DNA of 27,858 bases, taken from IMG/VR virus record IMGVR_UViG_3300028374_000052, positions 1 to 27,858 of that record; one strand, given 5' to 3'. The DNA comes from a virus. The number at the start of each line of letters is the position of its first letter. Positions within the stretch are counted from its first letter, which is position 1. The translations under genes were made by a program, and so were the position numbers. The notes under the pieces are model-generated. The model ran no database searches and was not told the origin of the DNA. It was given only the letters and a program-made list of their open reading frames with translations. Shown piece after piece: positions 3,070-16,462 of the stretch.

Positions 3070-4572
3070 TTATAAAGTTTTTTCTAATTCTTTTATTTCT
3101 TTTTCTAGTTCGGATATTTCTAATTTACGTTGGAGCATTTTTTTCTTATAAACCTTTCTTTGATTATAAAGATTAGTAAGAATTTCTTTCAATGTAGAAT
3201 CCTTTTTATGATAAACTACACCATTATCACAGTATATTTTATCTTCATTTCCATCTCTATTTTTTGCAGCAATCTCTGCCCAAACTTTCTTTTGCTCTTC
3301 ATTTGACATTTTATTCCAAACCATGTCTGGGTAGCCATGTGGAAGTTTTTCAATAAACGCTTCAGGTGAGATATTAAATTGTCTCATAGTAGTTGGATAT
3401 AGCGAAGCAAAATCGAATGCTGACACCCATTCATAATATCCAGGGATTGGAGCTTTAACATAAGCACCTTCATATGACTCTCTTTCCTTAGGTTTTTTGA
3501 AACCTTTGGTAATTACCTTATTTTCTTTTTTATATCCTTGAGATAATAAAGCATCTCCAATGATTGTAGGCATATCCGCTTGGTAAATTGAAATCCTACA
3601 TAAGTTTGATATTGTAAATAGAAGTTCAAGTATCTTTGTTCTTTCGTCTATTTGATGAACAAGAATACTATCTACAACATTATACCAAACATATCGTTTG
3701 AAATCCTTCTCATATAGTTCATTCAATGATTCTGAGTGATAAACTTTATTGATACCTAAAATCTCCTTTGAGACGAAGTCTAATGTATTATTTTCTTTTA
3801 CCTTTATCGATCTATCATGCTTTGAAAAGATTGAAGCATAGTCAATGATTGCAACGTGAGAAGGGAATTTCTCTTTGTAATCCATAGATTTTGTTGGTGA
3901 TGCATCAGCAGGGTTTCCACCTAGTTTAATATATCTGTTTTTTAAATATGTCCAGTCAAATTTAACTACATTCCATCCTGTCAATAATCCAAATGAAGGA
4001 ACAATCTTCATAAAGAAAGTATGAAGCATTTCCATTTCATTTTTGAATTTCAAATACTGAAACTGACATTCATAATCTATTTTTGAAAATTCCTTATTAA
4101 CATTCATTTGGATCTCACCTTGTTCTCTAATCGAAAGATCTTTCAATCCCATTACAATTGCTTTACCTCTTTGGTTAACCACTGAAATAGTTACAATTGG
4201 GTTCTGAGTTGTTTGGCACCATTCATCGAAAGATTTAACACCTTCCTCAGGAGTTAAAACCTCAATATCAAGAAATCCTACAGATGGGTAATTTAAAGCA
4301 TAAAGTTCATCAGTTTCCTCTTTTGGCAAGTCAGCCATAAACTCATAAATTCTATGTTTTGTTAAAGTTTTAGTTGGAGATTTCTTAACGGATTTACCAT
4401 TCCATGCTTTTATTTTTGGATGCGCATTATCATCTGTATCTTTACATTCTCTCCAAGAATAAAGCTGTGAATCAGGTATATTAATTTTTTTAAGTTTAAC
4501 CTTTCCATTTTCATCATAATGAGAAACTACTAAAAGTTGTTTTCTCGAATTCTGTTCAATGTCTATTATCAT
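3070..4572 (-). CDS. 43A: family B DNA polymerase, N-terminal half (gp43A-like)
   Basis: A 500-aa protein matching the N-terminal part of the T4-type replicative polymerase. Exonuclease motifs are visible in order: Exo I GFLDIEV, Exo II LLTGWNVVKFDW, Exo III YVWYNVVDS. Polymerase motif A follows (FDFASLYPTTMRQFNISPE). The protein then reaches the segment NLYNQRKVYKKKM and stops after a short charged coiled-coil-like tail ending ELEKTL. Motif B (K-x-x-x-N-x-x-YG) and the catalytic motif C (DTDS) are absent, and I see neither elsewhere in the window. It can therefore act only with a separate C-terminal half, which should lie elsewhere in the genome. T4-like phages with a split gene 43 (43A/43B) are known. 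The start overlaps the upstream cupin-like gene (ATGA, 4572-4569). Confidence 0.9.
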   Translation of the reverse strand: MIIDIEQNSRKQLLVVSHYDENGKVKLKKINIPDSQLYSWRECKDTDDNAHPKIKAWNGKSVKKSPTKTLTKHRIYEFMADLPKEETDELYALNYPSVGFLDIEVLTPEEGVKSFDEWCQTTQNPIVTISVVNQRGKAIVMGLKDLSIREQGEIQMNVNKEFSKIDYECQFQYLKFKNEMEMLHTFFMKIVPSFGLLTGWNVVKFDWTYLKNRYIKLGGNPADASPTKSMDYKEKFPSHVAIIDYASIFSKHDRSIKVKENNTLDFVSKEILGINKVYHSESLNELYEKDFKRYVWYNVVDSILVHQIDERTKILELLFTISNLCRISIYQADMPTIIGDALLSQGYKKENKVITKGFKKPKERESYEGAYVKAPIPGYYEWVSAFDFASLYPTTMRQFNISPEAFIEKLPHGYPDMVWNKMSNEEQKKVWAEIAAKNRDGNEDKIYCDNGVVYHKKDSTLKEILTNLYNQRKVYKKKMLQRKLEISELEKEIKELEKTL

Positions 4573-14536: not shown

Positions 14537-14544
14537 TATTTATC
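14537..14544 (-). promoter_or_regulatory. candidate T4-type late promoter box
   Basis: The minus strand reads GATAAATA followed by TAAAAATAA, ending 26 bases before the ATG at 14511. It is one base from the T4 late consensus TATAAATA. It overlaps the UvsW stop (TGATAAATA). Such octamers are expected a few times by chance at this base composition, so only the placement supports it. Confidence 0.35.
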
Positions 14545-16462
14545 AAAGATTCACAGATTTAATTTGGTAAGGTAGTTCTACATCTTTATAAATTTTTAAC
14601 CTTTCGTACATGTGTCTAATCATGAAATTATTGAAGTAGACCTTTCCGTCTCTCTTTAAAGAAAAATCATCTGTAAAATCTATGATTAATAATTTTGATT
14701 TCTCATGATGTTTTCTTAATCCTCTACCGATACTTTGTCTTACAATTACTTCTGATTTATATGATTCTGTAAAGAAGATTGAGAAGATCTTACGTATCGA
14801 GACTCCTGTGGAAAAAGTACCATATGATGCTACAAGAATAACATTATCTCCTTGTTCCATTTTTCTCTTATATACTTCTCTAGTTTCTGTTGGAGTTGAA
14901 CCATCGACATAATAAATTTCTCTCCCTCTATTTAAATCTCTTAATTTATTATAGAGTGCTTTACCATATGCAACTCTATGAAATAATACTAGAGAATTCT
15001 TTTTAGATGTGGATATAGTTTTACAAACAAAGTCAAGACGTTGCTTGTTTTCTATAATATAATCTCTTTCAATATTATATAACCTTTTTGAATCAGCTGA
15101 TTGAGATGCTTTAAAAAATGCTTCTCTAATTTTTTCAGGTGCATAATTTAATTTGATTACTTTAATTTCTACTGGAGTAATATGTCCTTTATCAATTAAG
15201 AATCGAGTACCAACTTCAGAAACTACAGGTCCTGTTTGACTCATTAATGTTAAACGGTCAAGTGTCCCAGGCTTAGGGATTGTTCCTGATACTCCAAAGG
15301 TATAGTGGGTATGTTTACATTTCTGTAAAATTGTTTTAATTGAGTTCGCTTTCATTTTGTGGCAATTGGCAACGTTTAGTCCATTTGCTATATAATTATG
15401 ATTTAAGCCATCTTCTGATTTTATTCGAAGATTAAAAACTTCATCTTTATAATCTATTTTTTTAATTGATTTAATTTTCATAAAATAATCTTCTAAACTT
15501 AAAATTTCATCATCTTCAGTCAATTGATCTGCTCTTTTATATTCACCTGAAATTAATTTTACTTTATGATTTCCGGTAATTTTTATTGTAGATCCGTTTT
15601 CCATTTCTATTTCATACATTTGATTACCTTTTGATAAATTAGTATATACGAAATCAACTTCTTTAATTTCTTGTTTGAGTGTTCTATCATTAGTAGTATA
15701 TACTAAATCTCCTGAATTAATTTCAGATATTTTCTTTTCCGAACCATCTGACATTGTAATTAATGTATCTGGGTGCAAGCACTCATCAATACAGACAGCA
15801 TCAAATTGTGCGAAAAATTCTTTAGGTTTTTTAACTAATGATTGATAAGTACCAACAACTATATTTGAACTCTTTTTAATTTTCTTACCTGAGTAAATTA
15901 ATTGAATTTCATAATCAATTATCTTTGGGTCATTGTATTCATAAAAATCTCCATCTGCTTGTTCCACAAGAGTGACATTGGGAACTATCATTAAGATCTT
16001 TTCAAATTTTAATACTTTGATGAGATATGAAAAAACCATAAATGTAATTAAGGTCTTTCCTGCAGAAGTAGCTAATTCACCTAGGCAAGATTTGTATTTT
16101 ATTATTTTCCAAGCAGTTTCAACTTGATAATCTCTAGGTTGTAATGCATTTCCTTCGAATTGCTCAGTTACCCATGACTGGAAATCTTCTAATGAGATTC
16201 CTGAAAAATAAGAGGATAGGTTTTCAATTTCAAGTTCGAATTTGAATCTTTGACAAATATCGTAAACTTCTTTCCATAAACCAAAGGGTATAAGGTTCCC
16301 TTTGATAAATTTCACTTTACCATCCCATCCTGAATAGAATTTCTTCTTAAATGCCCAACCTTCAATTTGTTTCTCTAATGAGATATTGAGTTGGTCTATT
16401 TCAATTTGTGTAGCATCAACTATTTGTAGTAGTTTGTGCTCGTGTAAAACCTTTATTTTCAC
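14543..16462 (-). CDS. uvsW: UvsW-type DNA helicase interrupted by a mini-intein
   Basis: A superfamily 2 helicase that in T4 drives branch migration and Holliday junction processing and resolves R-loops, switching origin-dependent to recombination-dependent replication. Motif I is ELATSAGKTLIT (129-140). The DECH box is split: VCIDE (223-227), a 139-residue intein, then CHKMKAN (from 367). Motif III is GVSGTIPKPG and motif VI is RQSIGRGLRKH. Without the intein the protein is 500 aa, close to T4 UvsW (about 503). The N-terminal part (GWDGKVKFIKGNLIPFGL) matches the UvsW entry domain. The start is GTG at 16462: an in-frame TGA lies directly before it and the nearby ATG (16466) is out of frame. 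UvsY lies directly upstream, as in T4. Confidence 0.93.
   Translation of the reverse strand: MKIKVLHEHKLLQIVDATQIEIDQLNISLEKQIEGWAFKKKFYSGWDGKVKFIKGNLIPFGLWKEVYDICQRFKFELEIENLSSYFSGISLEDFQSWVTEQFEGNALQPRDYQVETAWKIIKYKSCLGELATSAGKTLITFMVFSYLIKVLKFEKILMIVPNVTLVEQADGDFYEYNDPKIIDYEIQLIYSGKKIKKSSNIVVGTYQSLVKKPKEFFAQFDAVCIDECLHPDTLITMSDGSEKKISEINSGDLVYTTNDRTLKQEIKEVDFVYTNLSKGNQMYEIEMENGSTIKITGNHKVKLISGEYKRADQLTEDDEILSLEDYFMKIKSIKKIDYKDEVFNLRIKSEDGLNHNYIANGLNVANCHKMKANSIKTILQKCKHTHYTFGVSGTIPKPGTLDRLTLMSQTGPVVSEVGTRFLIDKGHITPVEIKVIKLNYAPEKIREAFFKASQSADSKRLYNIERDYIIENKQRLDFVCKTISTSKKNSLVLFHRVAYGKALYNKLRDLNRGREIYYVDGSTPTETREVYKRKMEQGDNVILVASYGTFSTGVSIRKIFSIFFTESYKSEVIVRQSIGRGLRKHHEKSKLLIIDFTDDFSLKRDGKVYFNNFMIRHMYERLKIYKDVELPYQIKSVNL
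15365..15781 (-). other. mini-intein in the UvsW DECH box, 139 aa, no homing endonuclease
   Basis: The insert starts at Cys228 (CLHPDTLITMSDGSEKKISE), a typical block A with a Hint fold start. Block B is GSTIKITGNHKV with the conserved T-x-x-H. Block F is DEVFNLRIKSEDGLNHNYIA, and block G is NGLNVAN followed by Cys+1 of the downstream extein. The terminal Asn is present, but the usual penultimate His is Ala (VAN instead of VHN). At 139 residues it has room only for the splicing domain. Exact removal restores D-E-C-H and a normal-length UvsW, so splicing is required for helicase activity. Confidence 0.92.

What the first reader, a model, noticed from the sequence alone, without database searches (positions are those of the whole stretch)
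15365..15781. Mini-intein splitting the DECH box of UvsW, with Ala in place of the penultimate His
A 139-residue intein lies exactly between E and C of D-E-C-H, so the helicase is inactive until splicing. Blocks A, B, F and G are recognisable, no homing endonuclease is present, and the C-terminus is V-A-N/C rather than the usual V-H-N/C. Removing it leaves a 500-aa protein, the normal UvsW length. UvsW controls the switch to recombination-dependent replication, so splicing speed could time that switch.
Basis: partly seen in the sequence, partly recalled or inferred. Interest (0 to 1): 0.78.

Follow-up and report, generated by a model that had tools for sequence, protein, structure and literature searches.

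The report
Re-fused split intein in phage helicase
A phage DNA-helicase gene carries a self-splicing protein insert inside its catalytic motif; 81 of its 84 relatives at the same spot are encoded as two separate genes, mostly with an endonuclease gene between them, so this continuous copy most likely arose when the two halves fused back together.

Summary
A 139-residue mini-intein (15365-15781, minus strand) sits exactly between E and C of the DECH box of a 639-aa UvsW-type helicase, and removing it leaves 500 aa. Pfam, fold prediction and fold search all support an intein. The reading changes once relatives are included.

I found 85 distinct inteins at this site, essentially all in phages. 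Of these, 81 are split: helicase N-half plus intein-N ends in a stop, a gap follows (usually holding a TnsA-like PD-(D/E)XK endonuclease gene), then a separate gene starts "MKIK..." with intein-C plus the C-half. The window is one of four continuous copies, is nested among split ones, and keeps the intein-C start, "MKIKSIKK", inside its frame. Best explanation: a split ("fractured") gene whose endonuclease was lost and whose halves re-fused.

Alanine for the penultimate His is not special: the family has Ser (69), Ala (12), His (2), Lys (1), Gln (1). Intein-free close relatives are common, so a mobile element explains the data; a replication timer has no support. All 65 intein-bearing alleles have Cys at +1; 52 of 55 intein-free alleles have Thr. 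Splicing itself is untested.

The parts
14543..16462 (-). uvsW-type SF2 helicase precursor, 639 aa, GTG start
15782..16462 (-). N-extein (227 aa) ending ...CIDE
15365..15781 (-). mini-intein, 139 aa (Cys1 ... Asn139)
15482..15781 (-). part matching intein-N of split relatives (100 aa, ends ...DDEILSLEDYF)
15365..15481 (-). part matching intein-C of split relatives (39 aa, MKIKSIKKI...NVAN); its ATG lines up with the start codon of the separate intein-C gene in relatives
14543..15364 (-). C-extein (273 aa plus stop) starting CHKMK
15764..15794 (-). short tract across the N-junction: 7 substitutions against near-identical contig L002/L023, rare codons in the window
14792..14801 (-). second short tract: 9 substitutions in 10 bases just 3' of the GTFSTG motif, where relatives carry a second endonuclease break

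Best explanation
This is a splicing-competent class-1-type mini-intein (inferred from sequence and predicted fold) that excises itself from the UvsW precursor and joins E227 to C367, restoring the DECH box. It descends from a split intein of a 'fractured' uvsW gene: N-half plus intein-N, endonuclease gene, intein-C plus C-half. In this lineage the endonuclease gene was lost and the two reading frames fused in frame, turning trans-splicing back into cis-splicing. The element spread by homing into the DECH site and brought its required +1 Cys; this copy carries no endonuclease and so should no longer home on its own. Shown: anatomy, relatives, nesting, retained internal start. Inferred: splicing, direction of change, homing.
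For: 85 same-site inteins, 81 split and 4 continuous. The window's intein lies in a starred clade (SH-aLRT 97) with 39 split and no other continuous copy, and in a 14-row group (94) whose other 13 are split. One clade for the four continuous copies is rejected, p-AU 0.0004. Without re-fusion, the path to the window needs at least 8 separate fractures at support 80, against one fusion. The ATG of the separate intein-C gene is kept in frame in the window: MKIKSIKK; 65 of 81 split intein-C parts contain M[KR][ILV]. Eight split loci have lost the endonuclease but are not fused: intein-N stop and intein-C start lie tens of bases apart or overlap. Catalytic residues are intact: Cys1, TGNH, HNY, Asn139, Cys+1. 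High-confidence Hint fold. A near-identical contig with 53 mismatches over 8.4 kb has the same fusion, so an assembly error is unlikely.
Against: The intein tree has few columns (141); collapsing branches below 95 leaves only 2 fractures against 1 fusion on the path to the window, so support for the direction is moderate. Splicing was not observed. The exact deletion end points cannot be reconstructed. The two contigs carrying the fusion are almost identical, so they count as one event.
Confidence: 0.78

Rival explanations
1. The window keeps the ancestral continuous mini-intein, and the many split copies arose by repeated insertion of endonuclease genes into such inteins.
For: Three other continuous copies exist at the site (L090, L151, L161); with only branches of support 95 or more, just two fractures are needed on the path to the window.
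Against: Needs at least 8 fractures at support 80; leaves the in-frame ATG at the intein-C start as coincidence; L151 and L161 have no Met and no extra linker there.
Confidence: 0.15
2. The intein is a retained regulatory switch: slow splicing (Ala for His) delays active UvsW and so times the move to recombination-dependent replication.
For: It interrupts motif II, so the precursor should be inactive; UvsW has this role in T4 (Dudas and Kreuzer 2001, cited in PMC3322345).
Against: Sporadic presence: 14 of 24 nearest helicases lack it; Ala is within the family's normal range; most copies travel with an endonuclease gene; cis fusion would if anything speed assembly (inference).
Confidence: 0.05
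3. Degenerate, non-splicing insert, so uvsW is dead in this phage.
For: No penultimate His, F:4 Asn, no mobility function.
Against: Cys1, TGNH, Asn139 and Cys+1 are intact; F:4 Asn and non-His are shared by nearly the whole family; both extein halves are intact and match helicase families.
Confidence: 0.04

Closest known systems
Fractured genes with split inteins (Dassa et al. 2009, Nucleic Acids Res 37:2560; not held, cited from memory and from reference lists)
   Same: Relatives at this site have exactly that arrangement: gene half plus intein-N, free-standing endonuclease, intein-C plus gene half.
   Different: The window is one continuous ORF without the endonuclease; the relatives' endonuclease is TnsA-like PD-(D/E)XK, whereas (from memory) about half of Dassa's loci had a Vsr-like family. 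Whether UvsW was among their eight enzyme types could not be checked.
Salmonella phage S16 gp114 / gp114.1 / gp115 and Proteus phage PM2 gp180-182
   Same: Same DECH site; same split order with an endonuclease-like ORF in the gap. Annotated only as 'DNA helicase' twice plus a hypothetical protein.
   Different: Split; penultimate His present; intein-N 43% identical to the window's.
Ssp/Npu DnaE, gp41-1 and NrdJ-1 split inteins
   Same: Hint fold, TM about 0.8; Ssp DnaE has penultimate Ala and Npu Ser (own knowledge; ref 87 in PMC4031507).
   Different: Different host genes and sites; fused forms of these are laboratory constructs (own knowledge), whereas the window's fusion is natural.
Npu DnaB mini-intein (4o1r)
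   Same: Nearest solved sequence (E 1.9e-6) and a natural cis mini-intein of similar size.
   Different: Different site and helicase family.

Membership tests
Intein (class 1) | Nucleophile at intein position 1 | tested here: met
   Cys1 in the window and in 85 of 85
Intein (class 1) | Block B TxxH | tested here: met
   TGNH, residues 69-72; 81 of 85 TGNH
Intein (class 1) | C-terminal Asn and +1 Cys/Ser/Thr | tested here: met
   Asn139 and Cys367; 85 of 85 Asn; 65 of 65 Cys
Intein (class 1) | Penultimate His (common, not obligatory) | tested here: not met
   Ala; family Ser 69, Ala 12, His 2, Lys 1, Gln 1. Not a defining feature: Ssp DnaE lacks it (PMC4031507 refs 74, 87)
Intein (class 1) | Block F position 4 usually Asp, Cys or Trp (PMC4031507) | tested here: not met
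   Asn in the window and in 82 of 85; described as less conserved, so not defining
Intein (class 1) | Hint fold | tested here: met
   pLDDT 94; TM 0.83 to 4o1r
Intein (class 1) | Self-splicing | not testable with these tools
   needs expression
Mini-intein | No endonuclease domain, about 130-150 aa | tested here: met
   139 aa
Fractured gene / split intein | Intein halves in two separate ORFs | tested here: not met
   continuous in the window; met in 81 relatives. The window is a derivative, not a member
Fractured gene / split intein | Free-standing endonuclease gene between the halves | tested here: not met
   none in the window record or in L002's record, with positive controls; an ORF occupies the gap in 70 of 81 split relatives, mostly with the endonuclease motif
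UvsW helicase | SF2 ResIII/DEAD core, helicase C domain, UvsW_N | tested here: met
   ResIII 3.9e-15, Helicase_C 6.9e-5 (23.5 bits, equal to its cut-off), UvsW_N 4.6e-5 just under its cut-off; PHROG DNA helicase 5e-72

The most novel reading that the evidence does not exclude
Gene fracture by split inteins is reversible and runs as a cycle in phages: empty site, fractured gene with endonuclease, fractured gene without endonuclease, re-fused cis intein, with several independent re-fusions at one site.
Probability: 0.4. Interest if true: 0.72.

Novelty: new variant of a known kind. Interest (0 to 1): 0.6.

Why it matters
Split inteins are usually described as arising from continuous ones; from memory, I know of no report of a natural reversal. 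One site in one phage gene shows every stage, which makes the direction and the number of changes testable. It also supplies a large set of naturally split inteins (81 distinct at one site) that mostly lack both the penultimate His and the usual F:4 Asp, of possible use for enzymology and protein ligation, and it shows that PHROGs already holds the two halves as separate 'DNA helicase' families (phrog_16259 and phrog_9690).

Tried and rejected
Timer role: rejected for lack of support. Ala as a mark of slow or defective splicing: rejected on family statistics. Donor of the two recoded tracts: exact patterns not found in viral contigs. Cellular relatives: only three weak hits in genome contigs, so the family looks phage-confined. 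Endonuclease elsewhere in the two records: none, but both are fragments. Alignments mixing intein-N and intein-C pieces (A5, A6) misaligned, probably because of the internal symmetry of the Hint fold, and were dropped; A8 was used. Dassa et al. 2009 was not held, so overlap with their enzyme list is unchecked.

Full report
Observation. The ORF at 14543-16462 on the minus strand encodes 639 aa. Residues 228-366 form a 139-aa insert between E and C of IDECHK; the joined exteins are 500 aa. Pfam gives Intein_splicing above its cut-off and ResIII/DEAD/helicase-C on the exteins. A structure predicted from 35 aligned sequences has mean pLDDT 94 and matches solved inteins: Npu DnaB, gp41-1, NrdJ-1, Npu and Ssp DnaE.

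Relatives. Searches of phage records and IMG/VR with the intein, with its N-part, with its C-part and with the helicase N-half gave 85 distinct inteins at the same DE|C site. In 81 the gene is broken: the first ORF usually ends about 93-130 residues into the intein, and a second ORF begins with the intein-C part and runs into CH... of the helicase. Of 81 split loci, 70 have an ORF in the gap, mostly 240-380 aa. Most of these are related endonucleases with a VDF...YEIK motif (alignment), Pfam TnsA-like PF08722 and PHROG 'endonuclease'. The family includes Salmonella phage S16, Proteus phage PM2 and Lak-B phages. The same nuclease family also lies between the halves of large terminase genes in T4-like phages. 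PHROGs holds the two helicase halves as separate families whose boundaries fall at the window's intein-N and intein-C limits.

Direction of change. In the intein tree the window falls inside 39 split inteins (SH-aLRT 97) and inside a 14-row group (94) whose other members are all split. The four continuous copies do not form one clade, p-AU 0.0004. If fusion never happened, at least 8 separate fractures are needed on the path to the window when branches under 80 are collapsed, and 2 when branches under 95 are collapsed. The window's ORF reads ...TEDDEILSLEDYF-MKIKSIKKIDY...: the Met is where the separate intein-C gene of relatives starts, and two other continuous copies, L151 and L161, lack both that Met and the short linker. 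In 62 of 78 split loci a long ORF stops within 40 bases of the intein-C start. Eight split loci no longer hold an endonuclease, with the intein-N stop and intein-C start tens of bases apart or overlapping. These look like intermediates (inference).

Mobility. In the helicase tree the 24 rows nearest the window include 14 intein-free, 8 split and 2 continuous alleles, so the element is sporadic. All 65 intein-bearing alleles have Cys after the site, while 52 of 55 intein-free ones have Thr, 2 Ala and 1 Cys; in 5-6 independent comparisons the two traits almost always change together and never in opposite directions (the sign test is borderline because pairs are few). The simplest reading is that homing copies the +1 codon with the intein, since splicing needs it.

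The penultimate residue. Across 85 inteins it is Ser 69, Ala 12, His 2, Lys 1, Gln 1, and F:4 is Asn in 82. The window's Ala is thus ordinary in its family. Splicing without a penultimate His is established for other inteins (Chen et al. 2000 and Sun et al. 2005, refs 74 and 87 in PMC4031507).

Recent exchange. Against the near-identical contig L002/L023, uvsW differs at 17 positions, 16 of them in two tracts: 31 bases across the intein N-junction and 10 bases just after GTFSTG. At the latter place L004 and L008 have a second break with an HNH-type endonuclease. The window's version of both tracts uses codons that are rare in its genes. This fits two short conversion tracts at two endonuclease sites, but no donor was found.

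Mechanism. Most likely: the precursor is translated as one chain, the Hint domain folds, Cys1 and Cys+1 carry out the acyl shift and transesterification, Asn139 cyclises, and motif II is restored. All of this is inferred from the conserved residues and the fold. The precursor is probably inactive as an ATPase (inference). No evidence favours regulated timing.

Verdict. A real intein whose main interest is its history: a probable natural return from split to continuous.

Noticed in passing
L004 6288-8463; L008 6118-8303; L259 (Vibrio phage D506) 1277-3039: Second break in UvsW near VASYGTFSTG: the first ORF gains a conserved tail of about 45 aa (FGDKEIKV...LSDGTQKKARDITCDDDV...). In L004 and L008 an HNH endonuclease gene follows; in Vibrio phages the halves are adjacent. 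No intein-C part is visible, so it may be a gene in pieces without splicing.
   Followed up: partly
L006 5291-9566; also L014, L031: About 4.3 kb of other genes, two of them weakly tail-fibre-like, and no endonuclease recognised, lie between the split helicase halves. L013 has a shorter gap of about 1.5 kb.
   Followed up: partly
window 15764-15794 and 14792-14801: Two tight tracts hold 16 of 17 differences in uvsW against a 99% identical contig, both at endonuclease-associated sites.
   Followed up: partly
window 3070-4572: B-family DNA polymerase N-part of only 500 aa, matching the whole of phrog_2062 (502 positions); it ends in a coiled-coil-like tail, has no intein-N, and no C-part was identified in the window.
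   Followed up: no
L260 1603-4437 (Pseudomonas phage PspYZU05): Large terminase is broken at its own IDEC motif with the same nuclease family between the halves; looks like an atypically split intein.
   Followed up: no
collection-wide: All but three of 55 intein-free UvsW alleles near the window read DE-TH rather than DE-CH.
   Followed up: yes
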